From a virus, in IMG/VR virus record IMGVR_UViG_3300003937_000384, positions 1 through 58,345 of that record: a DNA stretch of 58,345 bases, one strand, 5' to 3'. The translations under genes and the position numbers were made by a program. Shown in pieces: positions 1,195 through 34,667 of the stretch. Under the pieces are notes generated by a model. The model had not been told where the DNA came from. It was given only the letters and a program-made list of their open reading frames with translations, and made no database searches. Positions within the stretch are counted from its first letter, which is position 1. Each line of letters opens with the position of its first letter.

Positions 1195-1248
1195 GGCTTG
1201 GCGCGGCTTGGCCTGGTCTCCCTCTCCACGGAGTGAACCAATGGCCGT

Positions 1249-2988: not shown

Positions 2989-2990
2989 GG

Positions 2991-3528: not shown

Positions 3529-3565
3529 GCAAGAGCGCACTTATGGTTTCCCTGCGGGAAACCGT
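3529..3565 (-). other. Predicted oriT with MOBQ-type nick region
   Basis: Read on the minus strand, an 8-bp perfect inverted repeat (GGTTTCCC, GCA loop, GGGAAACC) is followed at once by ATAAGTGCGCTCTTGC. RSF1010/R1162-type origins have the same order: a hairpin, then TAA(A/G)TGCG and C, with cleavage after the last G. By analogy the nick falls on the minus strand between 3536 and 3535. The site lies about 110 bp upstream of the relaxase start. Confidence 0.75.
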
Positions 3566-3674
3566 GCGCCGGGGCTCCGCCCCAGACCCCGGCCCGCTTC
3601 GCAGGCCGCCCCCGATGCTAGCCCCCTCGGGGGCGTCGCCAAAAACAAGAGCAGGAGCAAGGACAAAAATCGAA

Positions 3675-5396
3675 ATGGCCATTTATCACGCCACCGTCAA
3701 AGCCTTTTCGCGCGGCAAGGGTCATTCCTCTACTGCCGCTGCGGCGTATCGTGCGGGCATTGTGATTAATGACGAATTGACCGGTATCAAACACGACTAC
3801 ACAAGGCGCAGTGGCGTTGCCTCGGTTGATATGTTGGCCCCGCAAAATGCCCCCGAATGGGCGCGAGATCCGGTCGCCTGTTTCAATCGCTCGGAAATGG
3901 CCGAGACCCGGCTAAACGCCAGGACGGCGCGAGAGCTTGAAGTTGCTCTGCCTGCAGAACTGAACGAAGCGCAGCGTCGTGCGCTCGCGTGCGACTTGGG
4001 TCAGATGTTGGTTGACCGCTATCAGGTTGCGGTGCTTGTTGCAGTCCATGAGCCCGATAAGAAAGGGGATGAGCGCAATCACCATGTGCATCTCCTTATG
4101 ACGCCTCGTCAGATCGGTCCTGATGGCCTGGGTGAACGTGCATGTGCTGAATTTGATGCGCGTGGTGGCGCAGGACCGGAGGCTATCCGCATTCTTCGTG
4201 AGGCGGTGGCTGACCGTATCAATTCGCATCTGGAACGAGCACAGGTCGCTGAACGTGTTGATCATCGCAGCCTAGCTAAGCAAGCACATGCCGCCGAAGC
4301 TGATGGCTATATCGGGTTCGCAGCCATGCTGGCTCGCGAAGCCACCCAGCACGAGGGTAAGGCAGCAACCGCGATGCGTAGGAGGGGTGAAGATAGCGAG
4401 CGGGCCACGGTAAATAACCAGATCCAAAACGCCAATCGCATTGAACTGCGTGACTACCTGGAACGCTTGGAGCAAGAGGGAAGGGTGATGGCGACGCCAC
4501 GCTCCCATACGCAAGAAGCAGCTCAACGTGAGCGGCTTGCAGCTGTTGGCAAAGAAGAGCGGCAACCGCACCTCGGGCAGGTCGCGCTGGCGCCGCCACG
4601 AGCACGAAAAAGGCCAGCATCAGTAGAGCAGCGAGCTGCACGAGTGGGGTCTGCCGCATCGCGCTTTCCGCCAAGTCTCAAGCCAGTATTGATGAAGGCG
4701 GCTAGGCGTCTTCGTAGCAAGATTGCGAACAAGCAAGCAGACGAGGCCATGGCTCGTTACGACGCTGAAATAGAGCAGCTGGAGATGGAAGCGAGACGGG
4801 TTTGGCTGGAGGATATAGATGCTGCCGTTCGGCAAAGTCTTTCGACGGTCGCCAAGCTCTTTGACATGTCGAGCAGGGCGGGCGCCTACCCCCACAGGGC
4901 GTCATATCGAAACGATATGCGCGAGCTTCACAGTTCATTGAAGCAGGTGGCTCGTGACGCCACTCGATGGGAGCGCAGGCTACAAGCCGAAGTTAAGGCA
5001 AACATTTCACTCACGGAAGCCCAAATGAAATTGGTGACATGGGAGAGGAAAAATCCCAAGCCGTCGCTCTGGAGCGGTAGCAGGCGCGATTGGGCGCAGC
5101 GGCGTCGGAGTGGCGAAGAGCGCATTGAGCGGCGCAGGACGCGGCACGATGCTGCGCGTCTAGCTACAGGCCCGGAAGCACAGGTGAAGTATGCGGCGCA
5201 GGCAGCTACGAGTGTAGAAGCTTTGGATAGGCTCGCAGCATCAATGCTGAAGCGCTATCCAATCACTGCTGATACAGCACAGCCGCACAAATCGCAGTGT
5301 TCTGGAACTACCCCAACGCGCACGCTTACGGAACAACTGAACGATAGCGAGTTGGAGAAAAAGGACCAAAGAAGATGTCGCGGACCTCGCGTCTGA
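3675..5396 (+). CDS. mobA: MobA/MobL-family (MOBQ) relaxase
   Basis: The 573-residue protein nicks and attaches to the transferred strand at oriT. The N-terminus MAIYHATVKAFSRGKGHS is typical of the family. Tyr25 (AAAAYRAG) coincides with the catalytic Tyr25 of R1162 MobA. Metal ligands are the H-x-H pair in NHHVHLL (136-139) and probably His125. The C-terminal half is Arg/Glu-rich and helical, with no primase motif. I chose ATG 3675 over an upstream in-frame start because the conserved domain begins exactly there and the upstream codons overlap oriT. A terminator follows the stop. Confidence 0.9.
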   Translation: MAIYHATVKAFSRGKGHSSTAAAAYRAGIVINDELTGIKHDYTRRSGVASVDMLAPQNAPEWARDPVACFNRSEMAETRLNARTARELEVALPAELNEAQRRALACDLGQMLVDRYQVAVLVAVHEPDKKGDERNHHVHLLMTPRQIGPDGLGERACAEFDARGGAGPEAIRILREAVADRINSHLERAQVAERVDHRSLAKQAHAAEADGYIGFAAMLAREATQHEGKAATAMRRRGEDSERATVNNQIQNANRIELRDYLERLEQEGRVMATPRSHTQEAAQRERLAAVGKEERQPHLGQVALAPPRARKRPASVEQRAARVGSAASRFPPSLKPVLMKAARRLRSKIANKQADEAMARYDAEIEQLEMEARRVWLEDIDAAVRQSLSTVAKLFDMSSRAGAYPHRASYRNDMRELHSSLKQVARDATRWERRLQAEVKANISLTEAQMKLVTWERKNPKPSLWSGSRRDWAQRRRSGEERIERRRTRHDAARLATGPEAQVKYAAQAATSVEALDRLAASMLKRYPITADTAQPHKSQCSGTTPTRTLTEQLNDSELEKKDQRRCRGPRV

Positions 5397-5408
5397 AGCT
5401 AGAAAAAC

Positions 5409-5438
5409 AATGCCCCCGAATATTCTTCGGGGGGCATT
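5409..5438. terminator. Hairpin terminator after the relaxase
   Basis: AATGCCCCCGAA pairs with TTCGGGGGGCATT across a short AT loop, 12 bp after the relaxase stop. The stem is strong, but a T-run is present only on the minus-strand side (complement of GAAAAACAA). It may act in both directions. Confidence 0.6.
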
Positions 5439-5440
5439 GA

Positions 5441-6246
5441 CAGAATTGGCGTTGGCCTCATGCTGTTTTTTAGCGGCAGCGCGTTGATAACAGCAACGGC
5501 TGCGAGTAGGTAGAAAGCAGCTCTACACACCCAGGCATCGGCCCCAAGCAACAACATAGCCGACATCGGGAAGAGCGCAACCCCTCGCAACCCAGCTGGA
5601 ACCAATGGCTATCGCACGGAGGTCCGATTAGTTCGCGCCCGGTGACAATCCGGGGCTATCCATCTCCTACGGATAGCGGCCTTAAACCGTGGAGGAATAC
5701 GTCCACATCCGGCAGCATGGCTTCTGCGTCGCGGAGGTTCCAAGGCATGGGTTCCCTAGCTGGCCTTGGATTGTGTGCCCCGTCTCGGGTCGGCCATGTA
5801 TGCGAAGGGCAAGATTGGAGAGCGTCAGGCGACAGCCTGATCACGGGGCAAAGCCCATGGGAGAGACGCCAGTGAATGCTGGTGGCAGGACCCCAGCCCC
5901 GGCGCCATGTCAGGCGTGAACCTGCCGCAGCTGTGTATTGACAGTGATCACAGCGCCGACGATGGTCCTCTGCCTAGGCAAGAGTAGGCCGGCCCGGCAA
6001 AGGTCCCCAGGCTCGCTTATTGCGGGTTGGGGGAGACTTTGCCTCGGTCGGTCGGCGGTTAGAAGCAAAGACCGAGGCAAAACAGCGGGCCCATAGTGTC
6101 CTGAGTCAGCAGGAAGATGTGTCCTGAATCGGGGGCGGAGGTGGCCTTGTCCGTAAAGGAGCACTTGGAGTTCTACAGCAGAAAAACGGAGCGGACCGAA
6201 AATTTCCGGGCGCCGACGAATGTTTTAATGTTCGGTCAAAGGCACA
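5441..6246. other. Gene-poor stretch with weak ORFs and inverted repeats
   Basis: No convincing gene is visible in about 800 bp. Candidates I do not trust include a 68-residue hydrophobic minus-strand frame (5399-5605) that runs into the terminator, a 76-residue plus-strand frame from GTG/ATG near 5689, and a 67-residue plus-strand frame at 6117-6320 that overlaps the next gene. A CTATCC/GGATAG hairpin lies near 5654-5673 and a 12-bp perfect inverted repeat at 6038-6081. The stretch could be decayed cargo. Confidence 0.4.
6038..6081. repeat. 12-bp perfect inverted repeat
   Basis: TTTGCCTCGGTC (6038-6049) and GACCGAGGCAAA (6070-6081) are exact complements around a 20-nt loop. Just downstream, two direct copies of GTGTCCTGA lie near 6097 and 6119. 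The hairpin could terminate transcription in either direction or be the scar of an inserted element; nothing else identifies it. Confidence 0.45.
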
Positions 6247-6657
6247 TCAGATTTGACCCCAAGGAAGGAAGAAGCGTGGTCCTACCTTTAGGCCGCGAAT
6301 TCGAGCTTGCCAGTCACTGATCTGTTTTATGAAGCTATCGACGGGATGCGCCGAGTGCTTACATGCTGCTATGGAATTTAGAAGCTCATTGCTAACTTGC
6401 ATCAAGGAAATTCCGGCGCCCTTGTGCTTGAGAAGGAAGAGCTCGGATGCTATCAGGTGAAGTTCTTCACTCTTATCTGAACTGATGATCTGTGTGTTAC
6501 TGGCATCGCCCATGTAGTTGATTGATCGAATAGCTCGAAGTGCCTCGTATTTCAGCGCATTGAACTTTGAGAGCTTGGCCATCAGCAAGCCCGAGTAGTA
6601 TCCAGCGGCCGTGCCGGGAATCAATGCCATCAGGAGGTCGTAGGCGAGGCTTGTCAT
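6247..6657 (-). CDS. Hypothetical membrane-anchored protein
   Basis: I do not recognise this 136-residue protein. It has an N-terminal hydrophobic segment (MTSLAYDLLMALIPGTAAGYY) and a soluble, mostly helical remainder. ATG 6657 is preferred because AAGGAAG lies about 7 nt upstream of it. The gene follows the XRE regulator on the same strand, about 60 bp away, so the two may be cotranscribed. Confidence 0.55.
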   Translation of the reverse strand: MTSLAYDLLMALIPGTAAGYYSGLLMAKLSKFNALKYEALRAIRSINYMGDASNTQIISSDKSEELHLIASELFLLKHKGAGISLMQVSNELLNSIAACKHSAHPVDSFIKQISDWQARIRGLKVGPRFFLPWGQI

Positions 6658-6719
6658 TAGGGTCTTCCTTGCTGGCACCTAGGCATAGCGTAGGAAGTCG
6701 CTAGGCCGTTCGGTGCGCG

Positions 6720-7079
6720 TCACTTGCTAGCGGGGGCGAGGCTTTTTAGAAGCGCCAGTGCTTCTTTCTGTTTTCGGGCATCAAGCTGTGTCAGCACCAA
6801 GATTGCCTCCGCAACCACGTCAGAGGCAGCAAGGAAGTAAGCGGCTGGGAGATCCAGAAGCTCCGCGAGCTTCTCAATGGTCTCCAGATCAGGCTTATGA
6901 AGGCCCCTCTCATACCTGCTGATGCGGGGCGCAGTGGTGTTTGGGTCATCCACTCCCATCAATAGTTCCCCTAGCTGGGCCTGAGTCCAGCCCTTGGCTG
7001 CGCGTGCGGCGCGGAGGCGTTGGCCAAGAGCAGTGGTTGTTGGTAACGGCGCGGGCATTCGGGGCAGCAAGAAGGGCAT
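6720..7079 (-). CDS. XRE-family transcriptional regulator
   Basis: The 119-residue protein has a Cro/CI-type helix-turn-helix at about residues 17-77: LGQRLRAARAAKGWTQ, then ISRYERGLHKPDLETIEKLA. A short helical tail follows that could dimerise. It is divergent from the three-gene operon starting at 7160, with an 80-bp shared control region, and probably controls that operon and itself. It ends about 60 bp before the membrane-anchored gene on the same strand. Confidence 0.85.
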   Translation of the reverse strand: MPFLLPRMPAPLPTTTALGQRLRAARAAKGWTQAQLGELLMGVDDPNTTAPRISRYERGLHKPDLETIEKLAELLDLPAAYFLAASDVVAEAILVLTQLDARKQKEALALLKSLAPASK

Positions 7080-7159
7080 TGACTACCCGAAGTGTGCCCG
7101 CCTAAGCTTAGCCGGTCATTTGCATTGAACGCAAATATTCGTTGGGCGAGGAGGTGGTT

Positions 7160-7639
7160 ATGGATATGAGGTGCTGGGCATTGGTGGGTCTTCTGGCGTT
7201 CACTGCTTCTGCTGACGCTATGCCCAGCCTGTCGTGCCAACTGCAGACTGGCCAGTTCAGGGTGGATGGGGGAGGGCGGCCGAAGGTATCCGCTTTCATT
7301 TGGGCCACGGGTCATGGCTCCGCGATCCCCACCGGCCCCATCCGAACCAGCATCGGCCGCATCGACTCCGTCGAAGGCCGGGACTACAAACGCGCTATCA
7401 AGCTCGATGGAAAGCCGGTTCTGCTGCCTCCCGAAGCGCATAGCGTCATTGGCTTCGGCAAGGTCTATGACTTCAAGGATGCCGTCGCTCTGGTCTATCT
7501 AGGGGAGCGTGAGGAGGACTCCTCTGCGCGGCCTAGTCAGATCGTGATCGTCATCAACAAGGCCGGGTCACTGATTGATAGCGAAGTCCTACCTGGCACT
7601 GCAACGAATCCGGGCAATCACTGCCTACTCATCGACTGA
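7160..7639 (+). CDS. Hypothetical secreted protein
   Basis: The 159-residue product carries a signal peptide (MDMRCWALVGLLAFTASADA) cleaved near ADA|MP. The mature part is a beta-rich domain of unknown family. GAGGAGG at 7148-7154 fixes the ATG at 7160. It is the first gene of a three-gene operon whose products are periplasmic, lipoprotein and inner-membrane, which suggests one envelope-associated assembly. The divergent XRE gene is its likely regulator. Function unknown. Confidence 0.65.
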   Translation: MDMRCWALVGLLAFTASADAMPSLSCQLQTGQFRVDGGGRPKVSAFIWATGHGSAIPTGPIRTSIGRIDSVEGRDYKRAIKLDGKPVLLPPEAHSVIGFGKVYDFKDAVALVYLGEREEDSSARPSQIVIVINKAGSLIDSEVLPGTATNPGNHCLLID

Positions 7640-7649
7640 AGGAACACAC

Positions 7650-7949
7650 ATGAAGAAGCTTTGGACGCTTTCCGCTACTGCGCTGCTGGTTGCTTGCTCG
7701 GGTGGTCCTGGGAGCGGCGATGTTGAGAAAGCCTTGGCCGTGTATTTCAAGGAGGCGACGGGAACGACGATGACGTTTGAGCACTTGAAGGTAGGAGAGT
7801 GCGTGCGTGGGGACAGCCCCGGCTATGCGTGCAGTGTCACCGGAACTGCGCGGTATCAGCTGGGCACTCGCACTGAGCAACAGCAGCTTGTCGGCACTTT
7901 CGTCATCGATAAGGTCGATGGCACTTGGACTGTCGTAGACCGTCGCTGA
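7650..7949 (+). CDS. Small hypothetical lipoprotein
   Basis: The 99-residue product begins MKKLWTLSATALLVACSGG, a clear lipoprotein signal with lipobox LVAC. The mature part has two further cysteines and a C-terminal beta region (TFVIDKVDGTWTVVDRR). It starts 11 bp after the preceding gene with AAGGAAC as ribosome site and belongs to the same operon. The family is unknown; small island lipoproteins of this size sometimes act in exclusion or lysozyme inhibition, but nothing here shows that. Confidence 0.65.
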   Translation: MKKLWTLSATALLVACSGGPGSGDVEKALAVYFKEATGTTMTFEHLKVGECVRGDSPGYACSVTGTARYQLGTRTEQQQLVGTFVIDKVDGTWTVVDRR

Positions 7950-7984
7950 CCCAGGTCCTTCCCAACCATCGCTAGGAAGCTCGT

Positions 7985-8521
7985 ATGTGGACCTTGTTCA
8001 AGGTAGTCCGCTGGATCATCACCGGTCTTGCACTTTGGTGGCTGTGCGGTGTGGTGTTCGAAAAGGGCACGACGGCTGAGGGTGCCGTGTTCGGGTTGAT
8101 GCTGTTCGGGCAGCTGGTCTTCTGGCCCCTTGCGCTGCTGTGGGGCTTGCCGTGGCTGTTCCGTCGCCGCGCGCCCAAACTGAAGAAGCATAGGCCTGAA
8201 GAGTTTGAGCCCACTGTTTGCCATGACCATATCGCCTTGGACCTGGGCAGGGACACTATCTGGATCCGGGAGCCCGTGAAGGGCGAGCGCTACCTGCGGC
8301 GGGCTGAAGTGCTCGCCATCCGCACTGGGGAATACAGCTACAAAGGAGTCATCACCCATCGTCTGGAAGTCCAGGTGCGGGACGTTGTTCACCCGCTCTG
8401 GCTGGTTCCTTTCGTGCGCCACTCCGACCGTTGGCTCAAGAGCACAGCTGTCAATGAGACTGAGAGGGATGAATGGTTCGCTAGGATGAAAGCTTGGCTT
8501 ACTGAAACGCGCACCATCTAA
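7985..8521 (+). CDS. Hypothetical inner-membrane protein
   Basis: The 178-residue product has two N-terminal membrane segments (about 8-25 and 35-56), a basic patch (RRRAPKLKKHR) that should face the cytoplasm, and a soluble domain rich in beta strands. That layout recalls small PH-like membrane proteins, but I see no diagnostic motif. It is the last gene of the operon begun at 7160 and ends before a shared terminator with the convergent zinc-protein gene. Confidence 0.65.
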   Translation: MWTLFKVVRWIITGLALWWLCGVVFEKGTTAEGAVFGLMLFGQLVFWPLALLWGLPWLFRRRAPKLKKHRPEEFEPTVCHDHIALDLGRDTIWIREPVKGERYLRRAEVLAIRTGEYSYKGVITHRLEVQVRDVVHPLWLVPFVRHSDRWLKSTAVNETERDEWFARMKAWLTETRTI

Positions 8522-8564
8522 GCAGCCCCATTCCAGCGAATGCAGCTAGGCAGGAAAGCAGAGT

Positions 8565-8595
8565 GGCCCATCCTCCATGCGCGGAATGATGGGCC
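8565..8595. terminator. Hairpin between convergent genes
   Basis: GGCCCATC and GATGGGCC are perfect complements around a 15-nt loop. The hairpin lies between the envelope operon (ends 8521) and the convergent zinc-protein gene (ends 8607). There is no strong T-run, so a bidirectional terminator role is likely but unproven. Confidence 0.5.
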
Positions 8596-8606
8596 TATGT
8601 TGCCTC

Positions 8607-8837
8607 TTAGTCTTCGCTTTCCTCAGGCTCCAACTTGCTCAGTTCTCCCAGTCGCAATAAACCGCGCTCGATCATGCTCTGCGCACAAGCAACACAGTAT
8701 CGATCCCAGCCCCGGTCTTTTCGCACCCCTAGTCGAATGTCTCCGCGTTCGATCCTATGTTTACTGTTAGCTTGGCAGTTGTGGGCCTTCTTCGCCCTGT
8801 CTACCATTGTCGAGACGATCAAGGACTTAGTCGCCAT
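8607..8837 (-). CDS. Small CHCC zinc-finger protein
   Basis: The 76-residue product has Cys21, His27, Cys48 and Cys51 spaced C-x5-H-x20-C-x2-C, with basic residues between them (HRIERGDIRLGVRKDRG). That fits a compact zinc-binding, possibly DNA-binding, module reminiscent of PARP-type fingers. Its ATG (8837) lies inside the end of the helicase gene, an 11-bp overlap indicating translational coupling. The two products probably act together. Confidence 0.65.
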   Translation of the reverse strand: MATKSLIVSTMVDRAKKAHNCQANSKHRIERGDIRLGVRKDRGWDRYCVACAQSMIERGLLRLGELSKLEPEESED

Positions 8838-10623
8838 CGAACAGCTTCCTGCAAACGCTTGCTGTAAGGGCATCGAACTGCCCCCGAATGGTGTCCAGTT
8901 CCACCTGTGACATCTCACTTCGTTCCCCTGGCTTCCGGCCGACCAAGGTGTTCGCCGCCTCGTTGAGAGTGGTGACTACCACTACGTAGTTGTCGCGACC
9001 AAGCCGTCTGTGATCCAACTCTCGCCCGCCATGCTTAATTCCTCGCTCATTGAGAATTCGTCCTGCGTGGAGTTGAATAAGCTCGTTAAGAGCGTCTCTG
9101 GCGGCCTGTCGTTTTGCTGCCTTAGGGACAGCGATGGGCTTGAGGGCTTGGGTAGTAGGGTCAAAGTCTGCAGGGATAATTCCGCTCTGCTTCAACAGGC
9201 GAATGGCGTCTTCCTCTTCCTGCTTTAGGAGGTGGATTTCCTGCATTTCCACCTCGGACTGCTCTTTGACCTCGGGCTTCCCATTGGTAGTGTCGCGAGG
9301 CGCATACTCACGGAACTCCGTGGGATCTGCTGGATCCAAGCCTTCAAGAGGAAGAAGCTGGTCAAAGAAGGATTGGTCATCTTCGCTGAACTGCTGGAAG
9401 TCTCCCCACCTGGCGGCAATGTTGCCGCCCGCATGAAAGATCACACTGCCCTGGTTTACAACGTCCCCCGGCGCATCTTGCTTGATTACGCGCATGATTC
9501 GCCCAACGAATTGGACGAATGGAGACAGGTTGGAGAACACGCTAAGGACCGCCGCTACCGACAGGAACGGATGGTCAAAACCTTCGCCAAGTTTTCTCAC
9601 CTGTACGATCACGTCCAGTTGATGATTCGCCAGCCTTTGCATGACTTGGTCATTCTTTTTACTCTCACGGGAATGCACAAAATCGGCCTTCCTTCCCCGT
9701 GCGCGATAAGCCTCCACAATCTGAATGCAATGCTCATAATTCAATGCCGAGGCGATTACCTTTAGGCGTGGCTCCCCTGTCAAGTTACGGAGCCGGTCGA
9801 GCTCCCTGAGGGACGCATCAACAATGGTATTCAGTGTTTCTTCGGACGTTACGATGCTTCTGCGGAAATCCGCGTCCTCCTCACCTAGGCGTCGGACCTC
9901 ATCTAGGGAGACTTCAACCTCCGAATCGCCTGGTCGCCTGACATAGCGTAAGGTCTTCGGATTGAGTTGGATTGCTTTGAGCTGTTTAACATAGCCCGCT
10001 CTGATCGCCTTGAAGATTGGGTATGAGTAAACGACGGGACCGCTCATCATCTGGCCATCAGCTCTAAGAGGCGTGGCGCTGAAGTTCACGACCGAGGCTG
10101 CAGGGAATTTTGCTTTCAGGGCCTCATAGGTTGCTGCAACGCTATGATGGCCCTCGTCGAAAATGATCAGGTCAAAGAAGTCGGCAGGAAGCGTTCGCAA
10201 CCACTTGTTGCCATCGCCGGAAATCTGCTGGATGTTTGTAATGGCAACGTGTGCGGCGTCAAGGTCACTTCGATTTGCATCGGTGCCTCTTATTTCCACT
10301 GGCTCTGGATAATTGGGGCCGTCCATCACATCGCAGCGTGCATAGAATAGCTTCTCGCTACTAAAGTCGAAATCAGCTGCCAGCTGCGTTGCAATCGCAA
10401 CGCCGGGAGCGATGATCAATGCTCGTTTCGATTTATACGCAAATGGAGTGAGCGTTATAGTTCCTGACTTTCCGCATCCCACGGGCAGTACTACGCTAAC
10501 TTCTCTTATGTCCGCACCGTCAGCTACATGCTGTGCTAGCGCCTCATAGGCTCCTTGTTGCGGTTCTCTGACCTTCGGATTTCCAGTAATGCGGGGTGCG
10601 ACATCTTGGAACGGGCTAGACAC
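8827..10623 (-). CDS. Superfamily 2 DEAD/DEAH helicase
   Basis: The 598-residue protein has Walker A PVGCGKSG (47-54), DEGHH (156-160), SATPLRADG (182-190), GEGFDHP (346-352) and QFVGRIMR (371-378). These are the full SF2 motif set in the style of type I/III restriction motor subunits and UvrB-like helicases. The last about 150 residues are helical and acidic, with no nuclease motif that I can see. The GTG start is preceded by AGGAG. With its coupled zinc protein it may be an anti-phage or DNA-processing cargo of the IME. Confidence 0.85.
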   Translation of the reverse strand: MSSPFQDVAPRITGNPKVREPQQGAYEALAQHVADGADIREVSVVLPVGCGKSGTITLTPFAYKSKRALIIAPGVAIATQLAADFDFSSEKLFYARCDVMDGPNYPEPVEIRGTDANRSDLDAAHVAITNIQQISGDGNKWLRTLPADFFDLIIFDEGHHSVAATYEALKAKFPAASVVNFSATPLRADGQMMSGPVVYSYPIFKAIRAGYVKQLKAIQLNPKTLRYVRRPGDSEVEVSLDEVRRLGEEDADFRRSIVTSEETLNTIVDASLRELDRLRNLTGEPRLKVIASALNYEHCIQIVEAYRARGRKADFVHSRESKKNDQVMQRLANHQLDVIVQVRKLGEGFDHPFLSVAAVLSVFSNLSPFVQFVGRIMRVIKQDAPGDVVNQGSVIFHAGGNIAARWGDFQQFSEDDQSFFDQLLPLEGLDPADPTEFREYAPRDTTNGKPEVKEQSEVEMQEIHLLKQEEEDAIRLLKQSGIIPADFDPTTQALKPIAVPKAAKRQAARDALNELIQLHAGRILNERGIKHGGRELDHRRLGRDNYVVVVTTLNEAANTLVGRKPGERSEMSQVELDTIRGQFDALTASVCRKLFDGD

Positions 10624-11096
10624 GCTTGTTCTCCTGGATACGTATTCTGCTCATGCGAAGTTGGGCGGCGCATTATCTGTGCGCCGTATTGGTCAGCAGC
10701 GGCTGACGTGAGATGTTCATTGCTCGCGCGGGCGTAGATGTCGGCATATTTATTGGTCGTTTTCATCCCGTGCCACAATTATCATCCCGACAGATACATC
10801 TGCCGGGCTTCTTGACGCCTACTGCGAGCTTTTACTTTCCCCCTGAAATTCCCTGGCTGATGCGCCCTTCAGTCATGAGATCCTGCCTCAGGCAACCCAT
10901 CTATTCAATAGTTTGATGTCTGTCACATTTTTGGCGGGGCGCCGCGTGCCTTTCGGCAGGGCCAGACTTGGCAAGACGCGCCGGGACGGGTGGCAAAGCA
11001 GACAGCGAGGCGATAGCAAGAGTCCAGCCCCGAATCTTGGGCACCTGGAGTGGTTGATGGCGTTGCCTAATCATTGTCGCCGCGATCCCCCGGGCG
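10624..11096. other. Intergenic region without a convincing gene
   Basis: This 473-bp stretch separates the helicase start from the integrase end. It should contain the helicase promoter. An 80-residue minus-strand frame (10536-10778) overlaps the helicase start out of frame and could be a leader peptide, but codon use gives no support. Short plus-strand frames look spurious. Confidence 0.4.
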
Positions 11097-12773
11097 CTAC
11101 GACGCCTTCCTCATCCGACTTGCTGGCGTCGTGGAGTGCGCGCTTTTGGCAAGAGCGACCGCTTTTCGTTCACGTGCAGCTGCATTCACCACCCTCCGCT
11201 TCGCTCTGAGTTGCGCTTGCTTGAGAGACTGCGCTGCCTCTCCAGGCTGATAGGCCGGCAGACCTTCGGGAACGGGGAGAAGCGCTACCGCGTCTGCGCG
11301 CGATTGGAGCGTGGGCACATCTACATAGGTTCCGAGCTCGCCGGGCATATGCGCCTTGTGCCCCGTAATGGCAGCGGCAATAGAGCTAAGCACCCCCGCA
11401 TAGAGAAGCCGGGTGCTCGCAGTATGTCGGAACGAGTGGAAGCCCATGCCGGGCTGCATCATGCCCAAGCCAACAAGATAGGCGCGGAACTGATCTCCGA
11501 GGGCGTCCCCGTAGCCTGCCTTCTTATGCCAAGGCAGGTGGGGAAACAGGCGCTCATGGCCCGACTGCGCTACATCTTCGACGTAAGTTAAGAAGCCCGC
11601 CTCCAACAAGCGTGGGTGGAGTGGGATGAAGCGCAAGGAGTTTGCGTTTTTCAGCTTTTGATCCCGCCGCCCCGCACGAATGTGGATTCCCCAAATGCCA
11701 TTCACCTCGGCCACATCGTCGGCATAGAGTTGCCCAAGCTCGTTGACCCGCGCCCCAGTGCCCGCTGCTAGCAGGACTCCCCAGTATCGATCAGGCCGCT
11801 CCTCTGACCAGGGAAGGAACTTCTCCATATCGAAGAGTTGGTTGATTTCCTCAATGCTGAAGGGGCGACGGGGGAGCGTGGCGATTGCGGTGGCCGAGCT
11901 CTGGCGCTTGATTCCATCGAGCGGCGAACGTGTGAGCAGCCCACCGGCTACTTGTGCATTGAGGAAGCTGGCCAGTCGGTCACGATGTTTGCCTAGAGTC
12001 CGATCAGACAGGCCCGCGATAACGAGCCCTTTGGCGCGTTGTTGCTTGACCTTGGCGATGATTTGCGCGGCGCTCAGTTCTTTGTATTCTGCCTTCTTGC
12101 GCGCATTGCTCGGCCAGTCATGAAGCCCATTTAGGAAGGCGCGCACTTGGGTCTCCCCCACTTGCGACATGAGCAGGTCGAGCCCTGCTATTTCGCGGAA
12201 GATGGTGAGCGTGTTTTCACTGTCGAGCAGATTGCCTGGCGATGTCTTAGCGTTCCTAAGGTCTTCCAGGTAGAGACCAACACGCTTTGTCAGGGTGTCC
12301 CCGGCTCCGGGCAGCGGTGAACTTTGGGCAAAGCCTGAGCTCGCGAGTCCCTTGATGGTGTCCAGCAGAGCTTTGGCGTCCTCGCGTCCATTCACCTGTA
12401 GGTCGGTCAATCTCGCGCCGTTAGGCAGCTCAATGTTCCCGGTCCAGCGGTCAATGGTTCCGGCCAACGCTCTCAGCAGGGCGTCCCGATCCTTCTCGGT
12501 CATTGGGCTACGTCTGATGCGGTCGAATGCCTGAGAGAGTGCCACAGCGGCGCTTGCCGCTGTAAGCCGCATCAGATCGATTGAAGCAGGGGGCAGGCGT
12601 CGCACCAGGTAGCGGGAGCCAATAAGAGGCTGTAGATCCGTAGGCACAAAAAAACGGACGTATAGCCCGCTCGGTCGGCGCAGGAAAAATGGCTTTGGCA
12701 CGGAGTGATACCTACTTTGATACCTGCAGACAGGCTCAGTTCGTGTATCACTCCGATGCCAAAACCCTTGCAA
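11097..12773 (-). CDS. int: Tyrosine integrase of the ssrA island
   Basis: The product is up to 558 residues. It has a DUF6538-like N-terminus (FFLRRPSGLYVRFFVPTDL), a SAM-like core-binding region, and catalytic motifs GARVNELGQL (Arg), SFRHTASTRL (H-x-x-R) and GELGTYVDV (nucleophile Tyr). The C-terminus is a basic helical tail. The TTG at 12773 gives the longest form; GTG 12701 is an attractive alternative because the conserved domain starts right after it. The gene begins about 35-105 bp from the ssrA 3' end and reads into the island, so it should catalyse integration and excision there. Confidence 0.9.
   Translation of the reverse strand: MQGFWHRSDTRTEPVCRYQSRYHSVPKPFFLRRPSGLYVRFFVPTDLQPLIGSRYLVRRLPPASIDLMRLTAASAAVALSQAFDRIRRSPMTEKDRDALLRALAGTIDRWTGNIELPNGARLTDLQVNGREDAKALLDTIKGLASSGFAQSSPLPGAGDTLTKRVGLYLEDLRNAKTSPGNLLDSENTLTIFREIAGLDLLMSQVGETQVRAFLNGLHDWPSNARKKAEYKELSAAQIIAKVKQQRAKGLVIAGLSDRTLGKHRDRLASFLNAQVAGGLLTRSPLDGIKRQSSATAIATLPRRPFSIEEINQLFDMEKFLPWSEERPDRYWGVLLAAGTGARVNELGQLYADDVAEVNGIWGIHIRAGRRDQKLKNANSLRFIPLHPRLLEAGFLTYVEDVAQSGHERLFPHLPWHKKAGYGDALGDQFRAYLVGLGMMQPGMGFHSFRHTASTRLLYAGVLSSIAAAITGHKAHMPGELGTYVDVPTLQSRADAVALLPVPEGLPAYQPGEAAQSLKQAQLRAKRRVVNAAARERKAVALAKSAHSTTPASRMRKAS
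12701..12755. promoter_or_regulatory. Inverted repeat at the integrase start
   Basis: CGGAGTGATAC (12701-12711) and GTATCACTCCG (12745-12755) are exact complements. Between them lies a direct repeat of TGATACCT (at about 12706 and 12719). The block sits over the alternative integrase start and next to the att core. It could hold integrase arm sites or an autoregulatory operator. Confidence 0.45.
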
Positions 12774-12803
12774 AATCAGCCACTTAGTGATAGATTTTGC
12801 AAG
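12767..12803. repeat. 11-bp inverted repeat beside the att core
   Basis: CTTGCAAAATC (12767-12777) and GATTTTGCAAG (12793-12803) are perfect complements with a 15-bp spacer, ending 2 bp before the att core. It may be an integrase or excisionase binding site, or an imported terminator for ssrA; there is no good T-run after it on the minus strand. Confidence 0.5.
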
Positions 12804-12805
12804 CA

Positions 12806-12824
12806 GTTGGTGGAGGTGGGCGGA
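12806..12824. repeat. Proximal att core in the ssrA 3' end
   Basis: GTTGGTGGAGGTGGGCGGA includes the encoded CCA end and acceptor strand of ssrA (minus strand). It differs by one base from the copy at 318-336. Integration here leaves the tmRNA intact. Confidence 0.7.
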
Positions 12825-13161
12825 ATTGAACCGCCGTCCGAAGGCACTCCATCCCCAGCACTACATGCTTAGCTCACCGTTGGATCTCGTCCCCGAACAG
12901 CACGGTGCGCAAAGCGCATCCGGGAACCAGCCTGTTGTGTTCTAGTGCCGGACTGACAGGCAGCCACCCAGCGCGATTCCATGATAGTGACTCTACACCG
13001 CGAGCATGGACACAAGCGGTTTCGAGGCTTAGGCCTTAAGCGGCCAGAGCGTAGTTGTCGTCGTTGGCAACTAGAGTTTTGCAGCTGGATTTACGAGGAA
13101 AGCTACCCCCTCGGCATGCGCCAGGCGACTTCACAACCCCCGTCGAAACCAATGCACCCCC
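12808..13161 (-). ncRNA. ssrA: Transfer-messenger RNA (tmRNA)
   Basis: The minus-strand RNA is about 354 nt and rescues stalled ribosomes with SmpB. The 5' end GGGGGUG pairs with CACCUCC before the encoded ACCA, forming a 7-bp acceptor stem. The T-arm region reads GGUUCAAUUCC (complement of 12823-12833). The tag frame at 13036-13068 encodes ANDDNYALAA followed by stop. The 5' segment also has the usual UUCGACG motif. The 3' end is the island attachment site. Confidence 0.95.
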
Positions 13162-13169
13162 GGTTTCTT

Positions 13170-13196
13170 CAAGTATTGCAAGGCTTTTGGGGTCAA
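13170..13196 (-). promoter_or_regulatory. Probable ssrA promoter
   Basis: On the minus strand TTGACC (13196-13191) and TACTTG (13175-13170) are separated by 15 bp, with the first G of tmRNA 9 nt beyond the -10. Spacing is short, so the exact hexamers are uncertain, but position relative to the RNA 5' end fits. Confidence 0.5.
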
Positions 13197-13358
13197 TGCT
13201 GGCAAAAAGCTGGCACTAACCCTGCCCAACGAGCCGAATAGTACGGCAATCTTCCTGAACAGTCACGCGGCAAGTCATTCCTGTTCATCTTCACTTGCTG
13301 AACAATCGCAGCGTATGCGACGCTCTGGCCGGACGCTTAAGGGGCAAGGAGCTCCGGC

Positions 13359-14192
13359 ATGTCGGTCACGCAATTGCTGGGACCAAGCAGCTACCTGTCT
13401 TACCTTGGTAAGGCGGGTGACGGCTGTGACGCCAACACGCACAAGGCGAGGGTGGAGTTTGAGCCTGGCACGCCAGTCGATGCCTATGTGAAGGTTTATG
13501 ACGAAGGTGACGCGCCCAAGGGTCTCGTCAACGAACTCATCGGCTACGTCTTGGCGAAGCATGCTGACATCGATGTGCCGGTGCGATCCGCGATCATGTT
13601 GTTGTCGAATGCCCAGACGGGCTACCTGCCTGATGGGTTCAGGCCGATGAAGGACGCGAGCGGCAGCGTCGTGGCGTGGTGCGTCGAGGACGTTGGCGGC
13701 AACACTCCAAAGCAGGCCTTTAGATGGAAAGAAGAGCAGGGGCTAGAGGCACTTCGTGATGACCTAAAGAAGTGGCAGAAGCTGGTTGATGTGGTTGCAC
13801 TGGATGCTTGGGTACTCAATGAGGATCGGAATCTCGGAAACCTCGTCCGCATGGCGCCAGGGAAATATGCTGTTATTGATCACGGCCGGGTCTGTACGGG
13901 GAACGCGTGGGCTGTTCCTTTGGATAGAGCTCGGGTGAGTCACACGAATAAGCTGGCTCTCGCCGCTTGGGACTCTCATAACGTCGAGCAGGCCCCTGCG
14001 AAAGTCAGATCCGGAGTTCTCAGCGCATTTGAGGCTCATGCAACCGTTCTCGCCAAGGCGGATCTCGACTTGTTGGAGTGGCTGCCCCGTCTTGTGGAGG
14101 GCCTAGAGGAACAAGACGTGAAGGATTTCCTGCAGCAGCGCGCAACTTCCGTCCCGAAACACTACAAGACAGCATTCCAGGTGCTGCTATGA
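13359..14192 (+). CDS. HipA-like serine/threonine kinase
   Basis: The 277-residue protein resembles the short HipA-type kinases. Visible features are a candidate ATP-binding Lys in YVKVY (Lys45), Glu59 (NEL), the catalytic loop D149...N154EDRNLGN161 and the metal-binding IDHG (173-176). It lacks the N-terminal half of full-length HipA (about 440 residues) and no HipB-like antitoxin is adjacent. AGGAG lies 8 nt before the ATG. Its stop overlaps the next start (ATGA), so it heads a coupled three-gene cassette. A kinase effector or sensor in defence or persistence is inferred. Confidence 0.75.
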   Translation: MSVTQLLGPSSYLSYLGKAGDGCDANTHKARVEFEPGTPVDAYVKVYDEGDAPKGLVNELIGYVLAKHADIDVPVRSAIMLLSNAQTGYLPDGFRPMKDASGSVVAWCVEDVGGNTPKQAFRWKEEQGLEALRDDLKKWQKLVDVVALDAWVLNEDRNLGNLVRMAPGKYAVIDHGRVCTGNAWAVPLDRARVSHTNKLALAAWDSHNVEQAPAKVRSGVLSAFEAHATVLAKADLDLLEWLPRLVEGLEEQDVKDFLQQRATSVPKHYKTAFQVLL

Positions 14193-15040
14193 ATCTGACA
14201 AGTCTACTCAGGACGTCCAATTCGAGTGCTGGCCAGGCCGTTGAAGGCGTGTGGCAGAACATTCGCTGGCTGCCTGATGCGGCCACAGGTGAAGTATTGA
14301 ACCTTGGCGTCCGGTTCAGGGCAGGCACTGGACAGAGCATAGTGCGCCTGATCGACTCATTCGATAGGGTCAAATGTCTTTATGACGCCAGCGTGGCAAG
14401 CGATGCGGAGTTTCTCGTGAGGGTCGTCGGTGACGCGTTGGCGGCTGGATTCGAGATACCAGCAACTGGCATCTTCCTCAGCGAGGAAAAGTATGCCTCC
14501 GGAACCAACGCCCGTGCAGTTGTCGATGACCTTTTTTTCCGAACCGTTCCGCTGGCCCGCCCGCGCGCGGACGCAGAGCGCGGCGGCAAGGGGCTGAAGA
14601 CGGAGCCGAATGACGCCATCAGAAGTGTCGTCTTTGACGAGCTACGGCGCATCTCAGGACTTCGCGCTGAGTCCATCATCCGCGGGGAGAACCAATTCGA
14701 GGTTAGGGAGCCCGGGAAGACTCACTACCTAGATATTCCACTCCAGTCCAATCGGGCGCTCGGTACGATCGTCTCGGCAAGGTTCGCCAAAAGGAAGGAT
14801 GCCGAGCTAAGGCTCTTGCGCGCAGACAACGATCTGCAGATTGCAAAGCGTGTCTACCAAGGAGATCGGATGCTGATGTACGTGGTTCGACATGATTCAG
14901 GAGCTGCAGCAGCCGAGCGGTTTGATGAGCTGCTGGATGATTTCTCATGGAAATTCAGTAGGGTCGGAGTAGAAATGAAGAGCTACTCTGATCCTCTGCT
15001 GGTTGCCGAAGACGTCGTCACTGATATGTTGGCCGCCTAG
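14189..15040 (+). CDS. DUF3037-like protein of the HipA cassette
   Basis: The 283-residue product has an N-terminal segment (VWQNIRWLPDAATGEVLNLG) resembling the start of DUF3037 proteins, which often neighbour short HipA kinases. The rest is mixed alpha/beta without motifs I know. It overlaps the kinase stop by 4 bp and is followed 12 bp later by the third gene. It may be the partner, target or antitoxin of the kinase; the sequence alone does not say which. Confidence 0.6.
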   Translation: MNLTSLLRTSNSSAGQAVEGVWQNIRWLPDAATGEVLNLGVRFRAGTGQSIVRLIDSFDRVKCLYDASVASDAEFLVRVVGDALAAGFEIPATGIFLSEEKYASGTNARAVVDDLFFRTVPLARPRADAERGGKGLKTEPNDAIRSVVFDELRRISGLRAESIIRGENQFEVREPGKTHYLDIPLQSNRALGTIVSARFAKRKDAELRLLRADNDLQIAKRVYQGDRMLMYVVRHDSGAAAAERFDELLDDFSWKFSRVGVEMKSYSDPLLVAEDVVTDMLAA

Positions 15041-31064: not shown

Positions 31065-31492
31065 GCAACCGCGGGCTCCGATACAACCGGATTGAGGACA
31101 TGCCGCAGGGCATGCAGCAGCTGGTGCACAAGGCTGGCCAGGCTGCACCTACGCGGGGGCCGGCCGAACACCAGGTGCGTGCACCGATGGAGAAGCGGCC
31201 GAAGTACGGCAACGTGATCACCACCGTGGACGGGATCCGCTTCGACTCCAAGCGCGAGGCGCGCTACTACGAGCAGCTGAAACTGCGGCAGCAGGCCGGC
31301 GAGGTGCATTTCTGGCTGCGTCAGGTGCCGATCCACCTGCCCGGCGGGACCAGGTACGTCCTGGACTTCCTGGTGTTCCTGCGCGATGGGAATGTCGACT
31401 TCGTGGACGTGAAGGGGCGGGAGACGAAGGAGTTCCGCATCAAGAAGCGCGAGGTCGAGCACCACTATCCGATCAAGGTGCTGCTGGCATGA
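31061..31492 (+). CDS. DUF1064 nuclease-like protein
   Basis: The 143-residue product fits the DUF1064 family of phage nucleases: GIRFDSKREARYYEQL, FWLRQVPIHLPGG, YVLDFLVFLRDGNVDFVDVK. It has the D...E...D-x-K pattern of restriction-like folds (Glu in KREARYYE, Asp in VLDF, Asp and Lys in VDVKG). It may resolve or trim replication and recombination intermediates. Confidence 0.8.
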   Translation: MSNRGLRYNRIEDMPQGMQQLVHKAGQAAPTRGPAEHQVRAPMEKRPKYGNVITTVDGIRFDSKREARYYEQLKLRQQAGEVHFWLRQVPIHLPGGTRYVLDFLVFLRDGNVDFVDVKGRETKEFRIKKREVEHHYPIKVLLA

Positions 31493-32445
31493 GCGGTTGG
31501 AGACCCAGCGGCCGCGGAATCGGTACTAGCGTCGACCTCAGTGCGGTGGCCACCACCGACCTGCTGCGCGAGATCGAAGTGGCGTTCCTCAAGGGGAAGA
31601 AGATCCCGTCCTGCGCCAACTGCAACGGCAAGGCGAGGGTGTGCTGGCCTGGCCGCGAGTCGCAGCTGGTGCAGTTCCAATGCCGACATTGTGGGCCCCG
31701 GGGAGCCATCTTCGACAGCAGCGCGCCAGTCCAGTGCGGCCGCTGCGGTTCCACCCCGACCGGCCTATACCCGCGCGGCGCGCAGATGCAGTGCTGCAGC
31801 TGTGGGGCATCCTCAGCTGTGTTCGTTGGCCAGGATCCTGCCGGTGCTCTGGCGGCGGCGCTGGATGCCTGGTGCCGCCGTACACCGGTTCTTCCATCGG
31901 CGGCGGCCGACAGTGCAAGCCTGCGGCGCCGTGGCGCCGCCCCGGATGGCTTCGACGATGAAGGGAAGGGCGATGTGCTGGAGCTGCTGTCGCGCCTACT
32001 GGTCGGTGGGAGCTACCGCATGCCAGTGGAGGGGCGCAGCACCTTGGCGCCGCTGGGCAGCAGCGACATCGCCGGCGCGGTCGGCTACATGCGCAACCCG
32101 CTGGAAAAGCACACCGCGCTCGCCGTAGCGACGAGGATGGGCCCCGCTGCGATCGCAAGGCTCTCCCTCGCGGCCTATCGTCAGGTGTCCAAGGACGTGC
32201 GCGCAATGCGACCGCGGCCGCTGGATCTCGGCAAGCCGGCCGATCGGTGGCGCCTTCGCCTGGTGATCTACGACGCAGCCCACGAACTGGTGTGGCCGGA
32301 GCGGCGCCAGCCGTTCGCTGGCCTGGCCAAGTCCGCAAAGATGCGCAAGGGCAACTACATCAAGGCCCACAAGTGCGCCAGCGCTGTCCTGCAGGAAGCG
32401 CTTCACGGTGGCAGGCTGGGCTTCCGTAAGGCGTTGTGGCGCTAG
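31489..32445 (+). CDS. Zinc-ribbon protein, candidate late antiterminator
   Basis: The 318-residue product has several Cys pairs in its first half (SCANCNG, FQCRHCG, QCGRCG, QCCSCG), suggesting two zinc ribbons. A helical C-terminal domain ends KGNYIKAHKCASAVLQEAL. It occupies the lambda Q position: last gene of the right early operon, before the late region. A Q-like role is inferred from position, not from a clear family match. Confidence 0.5.
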   Translation: MSGWRPSGRGIGTSVDLSAVATTDLLREIEVAFLKGKKIPSCANCNGKARVCWPGRESQLVQFQCRHCGPRGAIFDSSAPVQCGRCGSTPTGLYPRGAQMQCCSCGASSAVFVGQDPAGALAAALDAWCRRTPVLPSAAADSASLRRRGAAPDGFDDEGKGDVLELLSRLLVGGSYRMPVEGRSTLAPLGSSDIAGAVGYMRNPLEKHTALAVATRMGPAAIARLSLAAYRQVSKDVRAMRPRPLDLGKPADRWRLRLVIYDAAHELVWPERRQPFAGLAKSAKMRKGNYIKAHKCASAVLQEALHGGRLGFRKALWR

Positions 32446-33036: not shown

Positions 33037-33480
33037 ATGGGTCTGTTTTCTAAACCGCAGCTTCGCACCGAAGTGCTGAGAGCTGCAGATGGTCTGGTCA
33101 GGCTAATGGTGGACACGAGCGCCGAAGCTGAGCCGCTGGGTACTGCTGCTGCAGGCGTTCAACCTTCGGATATCCTGAATGATCCAAAGGGAAAAGAGCT
33201 TGCCGACTTCGTCCAGAATTCACTCCAAGCAGGGGTCAACAACTACCACCGCCTGACCGTGTATCTGCCGTACGTCCACAGTCATTGGGGCGACGAAGCG
33301 GTAGACGTGATCAATGAGCTTTTCCGTAGATTCAATGGTTTGTGGGTTGCGCTTGTGTTCTTGCCTGGCTCGACTGGATCTGAGCGTGACGAGAGAATCA
33401 AGACGCTTCTCGGTGCAGACGACCCGAATGGCGGGAAGCTGTGGGCGCTCAATAATGAGCTGGTTCGGTTGATGCCATAA
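33037..33480 (+). CDS. Moron: hypothetical soluble protein
   Basis: The 147-residue product (MGLFSKPQLRTEVLRAADGL) is soluble and mixed alpha/beta with no motif I know. It is divergent from the membrane moron at 32442-32939, sharing a 97-bp promoter region, and is followed by tandem palindromes that may terminate it. It seems to be an insert between the Q-like gene and the lysis genes. Confidence 0.6.
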   Translation: MGLFSKPQLRTEVLRAADGLVRLMVDTSAEAEPLGTAAAGVQPSDILNDPKGKELADFVQNSLQAGVNNYHRLTVYLPYVHSHWGDEAVDVINELFRRFNGLWVALVFLPGSTGSERDERIKTLLGADDPNGGKLWALNNELVRLMP

Positions 33481-33503
33481 CGTTCACTTAGCTGACCTCA
33501 CTT

Positions 33504-33539
33504 GTTCCTCATGAGGAAGATTTTTTCCTCATGAGGAAC
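33504..33539. repeat. Tandem 14-bp palindromes
   Basis: TTCCTCATGAGGAA occurs at 33505-33518 and again at 33525-33538, separated by GATTTT. The whole block is itself a 15-bp inverted repeat (GTTCCTCATGAGGAA pairing with its complement). The first copy followed by TTTTTT would make a terminator for the moron; as DNA the two identical palindromes look like paired operator sites. Confidence 0.65.
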
Positions 33540-33610
33540 CGCAGTTGCTTCGGGAACCGAAAGTAGGTTTGAATTCCTACAGTGGGCGTTCTTATGGGCG
33601 CCTCAATTCA

Positions 33611-33662
33611 AAGGCCGTTGATTGACCAGGACGTGGGAGTCCGCTGGTCGATCAGCGGCCTT
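33611..33662 (+). terminator. Long hairpin upstream of the tRNA
   Basis: A 19-bp stem with two G-U pairs (33611-33629 with 33644-33662) encloses a 14-nt loop and is followed by CTTGTTT. It could be the late-operon attenuator that a Q-type protein would overcome. The preceding 33541-33610 has no gene; it holds GTAGG-TTTGAATT-CCTAC, which resembles a T-arm. Confidence 0.5.
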
Positions 33663-33668
33663 CTTGTT

Positions 33669-33745
33669 TGCGGGGTAGAGCAGTCCGGCAGCTCGCGTGG
33701 CTCATAACCACGAGGTCGGTGGTTCGAATCCACCTCCCGCTACCA
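33669..33745 (+). tRNA. tRNA-Met(CAT), initiator-like
   Basis: The full cloverleaf is present in 77 nt: acceptor UGCGGGG/UCCCGCU, D-stem GAGC/GCUC, anticodon stem CGUGG/CCACG with loop CUCAUAA, variable AGGUC, T-stem GGUGG/CCACC with UUCGAAU, and encoded ACCA. Position 1 does not pair with 72 (U with U), and the D-stem has A11-U24. Both are marks of bacterial initiator tRNA. The anticodon stem keeps two of the three G-C pairs initiators use. It lies just upstream of the holin gene. Confidence 0.85.
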
Positions 33746-33877
33746 AACGGCCGGTAGTCATGGCCACCACTCAAGCCAGCACATAGGCCGTCGTGAGACG
33801 CGCCGCTGGTGTCCGCGCGACCTTGCAACCGCGGTAGTGGTGGGCCATGCCGGCCTCCTTTCATTGGGGGAACCGCG

Positions 33878-34132
33878 GTGAGCATCAAAGAGCAGATCAC
33901 AACGGACCTGGCGGTCGCAGGTTCGAAGATCGGAGCGGTCGTGAGCGTCACCGCCGCGACGTACTCGCCGGGCTACACCCTGAGCGACTGGGCCCTGATC
34001 GGCACAATCATCTTCACCACGGTGCAGACGTTCACCGTAATGGTGAAGAACTGGGGCGACTGGTCTGCCTGGTGGACCGCGCGGATGGGCAATGCCAAGC
34101 GATTCTGGGCGTGGATCCGCCGCCGTGGCTGA
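33878..34132 (+). CDS. Holin-like protein
   Basis: The 84-residue product starts at GTG 33878 and has two hydrophobic segments (LAVAGSKIGAVVSVTAATY and WALIGTIIFTTVQTFTVMV) and a basic tail (RFWAWIRRRG). That is the size and layout of small two-helix phage holins. It overlaps the endolysin start by 8 bp. With a SAR endolysin partner it would act as a pinholin or membrane depolariser. Confidence 0.75.
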   Translation: MSIKEQITTDLAVAGSKIGAVVSVTAATYSPGYTLSDWALIGTIIFTTVQTFTVMVKNWGDWSAWWTARMGNAKRFWAWIRRRG

Positions 34133-34667
34133 CACCAAGCTCAGCACCAAGCAACGCGTCGGTTTCGCCGCCGCGCCGCTGGCGTTGATTGGCGCGCTCG
34201 TCGCTGCCCTGGGCACGAACGACTCGGCGCACGAAGGGCGCCGCTATACGCCGTACTACGACTCGGCCGGCATCCTGACCGTCTGCGCCGGCATCACGGG
34301 CCCGGCGGTGGTGAAGGGTAAGCGCTACACCGACGAAGAATGCACCAGGCTGGAGACGGCCTACGTGCGCACCATGCTCGGCCACATGGGGCAGTGCGTT
34401 CGCGGCGAGTTCGAATTCCACGAGATCAAGGCTTGGGGCCACTTCGCCTACAACATCGGCACGCCGGCCTTCTGTGCCAGCACCGCGGCGAAGCGGCTCA
34501 ACGCCGGCGAGCGCCAGGCCGCATGCACCGAAATGTGGAAGTGGCGGCTCGTCAGGATCGATGGTGTGAAGCGCGATTGCGCGCTGCCGCAGTGGCGTTC
34601 GAAGTGCGGCGGCATCATCGATCGCCGGCAGTGGGAAATGGCCACCTGCCAAGGCCGCCTGCAGTGA
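34125..34667 (+). CDS. SAR endolysin, GH24 lysozyme
   Basis: The 180-residue enzyme cleaves peptidoglycan. An N-terminal weakly hydrophobic SAR segment (VGFAAAPLALIGALVAALG) replaces a cleavable signal. The catalytic triad Glu37-x8-Asp46-x5-Thr52 is present (HEGRRYTPYYDSAGILT). Several cysteines could regulate activation by disulfide exchange. GTG start; coupled to the holin and the i-spanin. Confidence 0.9.
   Translation: MADTKLSTKQRVGFAAAPLALIGALVAALGTNDSAHEGRRYTPYYDSAGILTVCAGITGPAVVKGKRYTDEECTRLETAYVRTMLGHMGQCVRGEFEFHEIKAWGHFAYNIGTPAFCASTAAKRLNAGERQAACTEMWKWRLVRIDGVKRDCALPQWRSKCGGIIDRRQWEMATCQGRLQ

What the first reader, a model, noticed from the sequence alone, without database searches (positions are those of the whole stretch)
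33669..33745. Phage-borne tRNA with initiator hallmarks
The tRNA-Met(CAT) lacks a 1:72 pair and has A11-U24, both typical of fMet initiators, while only two of the three G-C pairs in the anticodon stem remain. Phages usually carry elongator tRNAs. An initiator-like tRNA just before the lysis operon could support late translation initiation, especially as many late genes here use GTG.
Basis: partly seen in the sequence, partly recalled or inferred. Interest (0 to 1): 0.65.

Follow-up and report, generated by a model that had tools for sequence, protein, structure and literature searches.

The report
Phage-carried initiator tRNA, late operon
A family of viruses of Stenotrophomonas bacteria carries its own copy of the tRNA that starts every protein, unchanged in nearly all relatives and placed at the head of the late genes, with an altered stem found in many phages but in none of the bacterial genomes sampled.

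Summary
The tRNA at 33669-33745 is real and is an initiator-type (fMet) tRNA. It has U1xU72, G2-C71, C3-G70, A11-U24, CAU, an encoded CCA, G30-C40 and G31-C39, but U29-A41 in place of G29-C41. The Stenotrophomonas host's own fMet tRNA also has U1xU72. The two share 63 of 77 bases; five stem pairs are exchanged by double changes, and the acceptor end, D-stem and anticodon loop are the same. All 25 phages aligned with the window (mostly prophages) carry the identical tRNA, between a mosaic break at about 33490 and the holin gene, where neighbouring third codon positions vary at 46% of sites. It sits behind a terminator-like hairpin, apparently as first gene of the late operon. U29-A41 occurs in 15 of 104 distinct phage-contig initiator tRNAs. 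It occurs in no bacterial copy in 398 Pseudomonadota or 398 same-order genomes; the only match is this prophage. Phage-borne initiator tRNAs are already known, so this is a new variant of a known kind. Most likely it is a late-expressed initiator that supplements or replaces the host pool. Escape from tRNA-fMet-cleaving toxins is possible but untested. A role specific to GTG starts is not supported.

The parts
33669..33745 (+). initiator-type tRNA-fMet(CAU) with encoded CCA; U1xU72, A11-U24, U29-A41, G30-C40, G31-C39
   Evidence: ARAGORN, Rfam, comparison with host tRNAs, identical in all 25 aligned phages
33494..33668 (+). conserved non-coding leader upstream of the tRNA; a mosaic breakpoint with variable gene content lies at about 33490
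   Evidence: alignment of relatives; fold z-score -5.6 for 33539-33668
33505..33538 (.). two perfect 14-bp palindromes TTCCTCATGAGGAA, start to start 20 bp, variable linker: possible tandem operator for a dimeric late regulator, or one long hairpin
   Evidence: conservation; fold z-score -7.4
33611..33669 (+). long terminator-like hairpin with tail CTTGTTT, ending on tRNA base 1
33746..33877 (+). conserved structured spacer between tRNA and holin, ending at the holin ribosome-binding site
   Evidence: 6 of 132 sites variable; fold -61.8 kcal/mol, z -2.1
33878..34132 (+). holin, GTG start
   Evidence: PHROG 920; reading frame
34092..34667 (+). endolysin (lysozyme type)
   Evidence: PHROG 7, E 4.5e-32
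31489..32445 (+). 318-aa protein with zinc-ribbon-like N-terminus, in the position of a lambda-Q-like late regulator (candidate only)
   Evidence: weak S27e zinc-ribbon match; found in all relatives whose loci reach it; structure model unusable

Best explanation
It is a working initiator tRNA gene of a temperate Stenotrophomonas phage, transcribed as the first gene of the late (lysis-structural) operon behind a hairpin leader. Host enzymes would process it, charge it with methionine and formylate it. It would then enter the ribosomal P site and keep translation initiation going when phage late mRNA is most abundant and the host's own fMet tRNA may be limiting or damaged. Shown by sequence: initiator anatomy, purifying selection, late-operon synteny, and phage-restricted U29-A41. 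Inferred: transcription, processing, formylation, use in initiation, and the benefit.
For: All formylation determinants named in the review PMC7949028 (1x72 mismatch, G2:C71, C3:G70, A11:U24) are present, and the acceptor end, D-stem and anticodon loop are the same as in the host initiator. Host elongator Met and Ile2 lack them. Ten of the 14 differences from the host initiator form five compensated double changes in stem pairs. In the aligned relatives 0 of 77 tRNA sites vary, against 33 of 71 holin third positions (after correcting a one-base label shift). The rare variants are conservative: G7.U66 to A7-U66 in L104 and a D-loop change in L096. Synteny tRNA-holin-endolysin holds in every relative with an endolysin at least 85% identical. 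Detrevirus FBPa47 also carries an initiator-like tRNA-Met, with three other tRNAs, directly before its holins.
Against: No expression data. The promoter scan found no sigma-70-type site in 33300-34200. U29-A41 departs from the usual G29-C41, and an E. coli mutant with all three pairs replaced (UA/CG/AU) is inactive in initiation (PMC10486304). More distant relatives with 66-77% identical endolysins lack the tRNA, so it is dispensable for this kind of lysis module. The host already has at least two fMet genes.
Confidence: 0.6

Rival explanations
1. The tRNA is a cleavage-resistant replacement: host toxins that cut or modify initiator tRNA (VapC-type nucleases between anticodon loop and stem, AtaT-type acetyltransferases) fire during infection, and the re-written anticodon stem lets the phage copy escape, so phage initiation continues.
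For: All three upper anticodon-stem pairs (27:43, 28:42, 29:41) differ from the host. U29-A41 is widespread in phages and absent from 398 Pseudomonadota and 398 same-order bacterial genomes outside this prophage. VapC toxins cut fMet tRNA in the anticodon stem-loop (PMC8522696). A PIN-domain gene (Pfam PF01850) is present in G001 and G040, which carry this prophage tRNA. Other phage initiators change loop base 33 to C, also absent from the same sampled bacteria.
Against: The anticodon loop and cleavage site of this tRNA are identical to the host's, whereas the published evasion cases change the loop (PMC10264068). The PIN hits are weak and not shown to be VapC or to act on fMet; G025 carries the tRNA and has none. 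T-stem pairs are re-written too (2 of 5), so divergence is not confined to the anticodon arm.
Confidence: 0.25
2. The tRNA works mainly as RNA punctuation: RNase P and 3'-end processing at the tRNA release the holin-endolysin mRNA with a defined, structured 5' end, and charging is incidental.
For: It is embedded in a strongly structured conserved leader (z -7.35 over 420 nt), and the spacer to the holin is nearly as conserved as the tRNA.
Against: Punctuation would not preserve initiator-specific bases or the unpaired 1:72; any tRNA would do. The tRNA, unlike the leader, is invariant in the aligned set.
Confidence: 0.08
3. It is a captured host gene or passenger of no present use, or an attachment-site relic.
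For: Prophages do integrate in tRNA genes (general knowledge), and some viral contigs in the survey carry an fMet copy close to the contig end.
Against: It is internal to the phage, 20.5 kb from ssrA, differs from host fMet at 14 sites with compensated pairs, and shows 0 of 77 variable sites.
Confidence: 0.05

Closest known systems
Bacterial initiator tRNA-fMet (host Stenotrophomonas copies)
   Same: U1xU72, G2-C71, C3-G70, A11-U24, CUCAUAA loop, G30-C40, G31-C39, encoded CCA
   Different: 14 of 77 bases differ; U29-A41 instead of G29-C41; phage-encoded in a late operon
Initiator-like tRNA-Met genes of other phages (Caulobacter phages, Xanthomonas phage Elanor, Janthinobacterium phage Donnerlittchen, mycobacteriophages)
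   Same: phage-borne, A11-U24 and CAU in those whose sequence was read here; Elanor also has U29-A41
   Different: Elanor and Donnerlittchen carry theirs after the terminase gene, not before lysis genes; Donnerlittchen has C33
tRNA cluster before the holins of Detrevirus FBPa47 (Met, Gly, Asn, Thr)
   Same: initiator-like tRNA-Met directly upstream of the lysis genes
   Different: part of a four-tRNA cluster, three G-C pairs intact, C33, 75% identical
Phage tRNAs proposed to evade anticodon nucleases (PMC10264068)
   Same: phage tRNA diverged from a host tRNA that known toxins target
   Different: here the anticodon loop is unchanged; that paper notes phages generally avoided encoding tRNA-fMet in the VapC-LT2/Shigella case

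Membership tests
bacterial initiator tRNA-fMet | no Watson-Crick pair at 1:72 | tested here: met
   U1xU72, as in the host
bacterial initiator tRNA-fMet | formylation determinants G2:C71, C3:G70, A11:U24 | tested here: met
bacterial initiator tRNA-fMet | CAU anticodon in CUCAUAA loop with G30-C40 and G31-C39 | tested here: met
   30:40 is G-C in 102 of 104 viral-contig initiators
bacterial initiator tRNA-fMet | G29-C41, first of the three G-C pairs (usual, not universal, so not taken as defining) | tested here: not met
   U29-A41 here; many listed bacterial chromosomal initiators have A29-U41, so a G-C pair at 29:41 is not required for membership
bacterial initiator tRNA-fMet | is formylated and initiates in the P site | not testable with these tools
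   needs biochemistry
elongator tRNA-Met or tRNA-Ile2(CAU) | G1-C72 and C11-G24 as in the host copies | tested here: not met
nuclease-evading phage tRNA (PMC10264068) | anticodon-loop change at the toxin's recognition or cut site | tested here: not met
   loop identical to host; only the stem differs
nuclease-evading phage tRNA (PMC10264068) | resistance to a host tRNA-fMet nuclease | not testable with these tools
   needs cleavage assay

The most novel reading that the evidence does not exclude
Phage-borne initiator tRNAs form a class of their own, with anticodon-arm variants (U29-A41; in other phages C33) that bacteria do not use, kept because they let the phage go on initiating translation when host defences cut or cap the host's initiator tRNA, or because they pass a different initiation checkpoint.
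Probability: 0.25. Interest if true: 0.75.

Novelty: new variant of a known kind. Interest (0 to 1): 0.48.

Why it matters
Initiator tRNA is the bottleneck of every protein made in a bacterium and the target of several toxins. A single, invariant, late-operon initiator tRNA with a stem not found in the sampled bacteria gives a clean system for asking why phages carry tRNAs: codon usage cannot easily explain an initiator, so the choice is between pool supply and escape from tRNA-directed defence, and both can be tested with one gene deletion. The natural U29-A41 variants also probe which of the three conserved G-C pairs initiation needs: in 104 distinct phage-contig initiators the middle pair 30:40 is almost fixed while 29:41 is A-U, G-C or U-A.

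Tried and rejected
Attachment-site relic: rejected, since the gene is internal, diverged and invariant. Elongator Met or Ile2: rejected on 1:72, 11:24 and identity. GTG-specific initiation: no basis in the tRNA, whose anticodon loop equals the host's. A second, degenerate tRNA in the leader (a T-arm-like hairpin near 33565): neither ARAGORN nor Rfam supports it. Late regulator as a lambda-Q relative: AlphaFold model of 31489-32445 too poor (mean pLDDT 46), so no fold search was made. Literature: no paper found on phage-specific 29:41 or C33 initiator variants in the held library, which is not proof of absence.

Full report
Observation. ARAGORN and Rfam (57.9 bits) both place one tRNA at 33669-33745, anticodon CAU. 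Numbered in the standard way it has U1xU72, G2-C71, C3-G70, G4-C69, A11-U24, C27-G43, G28-C42, U29-A41, G30-C40, G31-C39, loop CUCAUAA, T-loop TTCGAAT, and an encoded CCA.

Where it comes from. The window is an IMG/VR record. Its major head protein is 99% identical to one in Stenotrophomonas maltophilia EA1 and 95% to one in Stenotrophomonas sp. PS02298. Position 15-58 kb has 61-68% G+C and phage genes: CII-like, O-like, P-like and Holliday-resolvase genes, then the tRNA, holin, endolysin, tail fibre, terminase, portal and head genes. The left 15 kb is lower in G+C (56-60%) and holds the host ssrA plus genes of another mobile element.

Initiator, not elongator. The genome of strain EA1 has fMet genes reading TGCGGGGTGGAGCAGTCTGGCAGCTCGTCGGGCTCATAACCCGAAGGTCGCAGGTTCAAATCCTGCCCCCGCTACCA, an elongator Met gene and an Ile2(CAU) gene. 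The phage tRNA shares 63, 49 and 45 bases with them. The host initiator has U1xU72 too, so this mismatch is a trait of the host's initiators and not of the phage. The 14 differences are: five compensated pair exchanges (27:43, 28:42, 29:41, 50:64, 51:63), one G-C to G.U change (7:66), and three single sites (9, 17a, 57). The acceptor pairs 1-6, the D-stem and the anticodon loop are untouched. The review PMC7949028 lists the 1x72 mismatch, G2:C71, C3:G70 and A11:U24 as the formylation features; all are present.

Selection. Exact 40-base matches occur in 24 viral contigs; 23 of them, and prophages in two Stenotrophomonas genomes, carry the identical 77-base tRNA, while a third genome differs by one base. 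In the alignment of the window with 25 relatives no tRNA base varies. Position labels are one base too high, so its label 'c1' is the true third codon position: 33 of 71 holin third positions vary, against 0 of 77 tRNA sites, 6 of 132 sites in the downstream spacer and 28 of 175 in the upstream leader. The naive chance of 0 of 77 at the synonymous rate is about 1e-21; shared ancestry makes that figure only indicative. Rare variants are mild: A7-U66 for G7.U66 in L104, D-loop changes in L096 and L104, and one prophage (G040, L031) with U43 that breaks 27:43.

Surroundings. Gene content upstream of about 33490 is not alignable between relatives, whereas everything from there through the endolysin is collinear. 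The leader holds two perfect 14-bp palindromes 20 bp apart with a variable linker and a long hairpin with a CTTGTTT tail that ends on the first base of the tRNA. The whole 420 nt folds 7.35 standard deviations below shuffles. By analogy with lambda (late promoter, terminator, then lysis genes; from general knowledge) I infer a late promoter and an antiterminated or activated leader, with the tRNA as first product of the late transcript. No promoter was found by the simple scan. The conserved protein at 31489-32445, zinc-ribbon-like and in the position of lambda Q, is a candidate regulator only. Relatives with endolysins 66-77% identical have neither tRNA nor palindromes.

U29-A41. A dedicated scan found at least 120 stretches with U29-A41, giving 58 distinct tRNAs with stems paired at 86-100% of positions apart from 1:72 at 34%. 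Of 398 Pseudomonadota genomes, 272 contain the free-stem pattern but only one matches U29-A41, and that match is this prophage; the same holds for 398 genomes of the host's order. A Fisher test of 15/104 against 0/271 gives p about 2e-9, although the units differ (distinct tRNAs against genomes) and viral contigs may come from hosts outside Pseudomonadota. Xanthomonas phage Elanor also has U29-A41.

How it most likely works. The parsimonious reading is a late-expressed, host-processed, formylated initiator that supplements or replaces the host pool. Codon supply is an unlikely reason, since the host has the same anticodon in at least two gene copies. That leaves quantity, timing, or protection. 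Protection is attractive because VapC toxins cut fMet tRNA between anticodon stem and loop (PMC8522696), and because the upper anticodon stem is fully re-written here. But the loop is unchanged and the T-stem changed as well, so I hold it at 0.25. An E. coli mutant with all three pairs replaced (U29:A41/C30:G40/A31:U39) cannot initiate (PMC10486304); whether U29:A41 alone matters was not found in the papers read.

GTG. A crude caller gives 15 ATG and 12 GTG starts in the late region, but portal, major head protein and connector use ATG, and nothing in the tRNA favours GTG over what the host initiator can do.

Novelty. Phage-borne initiator-like tRNAs are known, and so is an initiator-like tRNA-Met before lysis genes. 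What appears undescribed in the library searched is the U29-A41 form absent from the sampled bacteria, its invariance, and its fixed place at the head of a late operon.

Limits. No expression or biochemistry. Viral-contig scans were capped and patterns fix several bases. Bacterial controls cover Pseudomonadota only. Some viral-contig tRNAs are probably host copies at prophage ends, which would inflate the A-U and G-C classes, not U-A.

Noticed in passing
L061, L062 and the loci from L333 on brought in (not in the window): Initiator-type tRNAs with C33 instead of the near-universal U33 (loop CCCAUAA): 112 viral-contig stretches, 91 distinct tRNAs, and 0 of 398 Pseudomonadota genomes. The 1:72 pair is present in only 15% while other stem positions pair in 87-100%.
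   Followed up: partly
12808-13161 (-) and 11097-12773 (-): Host tmRNA gene (tag ANDDNYALAA) with a tyrosine integrase right behind its 3' end, pointing away from the phage genes. In the Stenotrophomonas genomes G001 and G025 ssrA likewise lies about 20.5 kb from the phage tRNA, so this prophage sits beside ssrA; in G040 the distance is only about 4.5 kb.
   Followed up: partly
1-15000: Lower G+C (56-60% against 61-68%) with a MobA/MobL relaxase (3489-5396), a PilS-like pilin gene (1249-2988) and a helicase (8827-10623): a neighbouring mobilisable element included in the virus record.
   Followed up: no
33505-33538: Tandem perfect palindromes TTCCTCATGAGGAA with conserved arms and variable linker; may be an operator for a late regulator rather than an RNA hairpin.
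   Followed up: partly
31489-32445: Conserved 318-aa zinc-ribbon-like protein in the lambda-Q position, found in all relatives whose loci reach it; no family assignment.
   Followed up: partly
L059 4041-4116: Initiator tRNA of Xanthomonas phage Elanor, also with U29-A41, is not annotated in its GenBank record.
   Followed up: no
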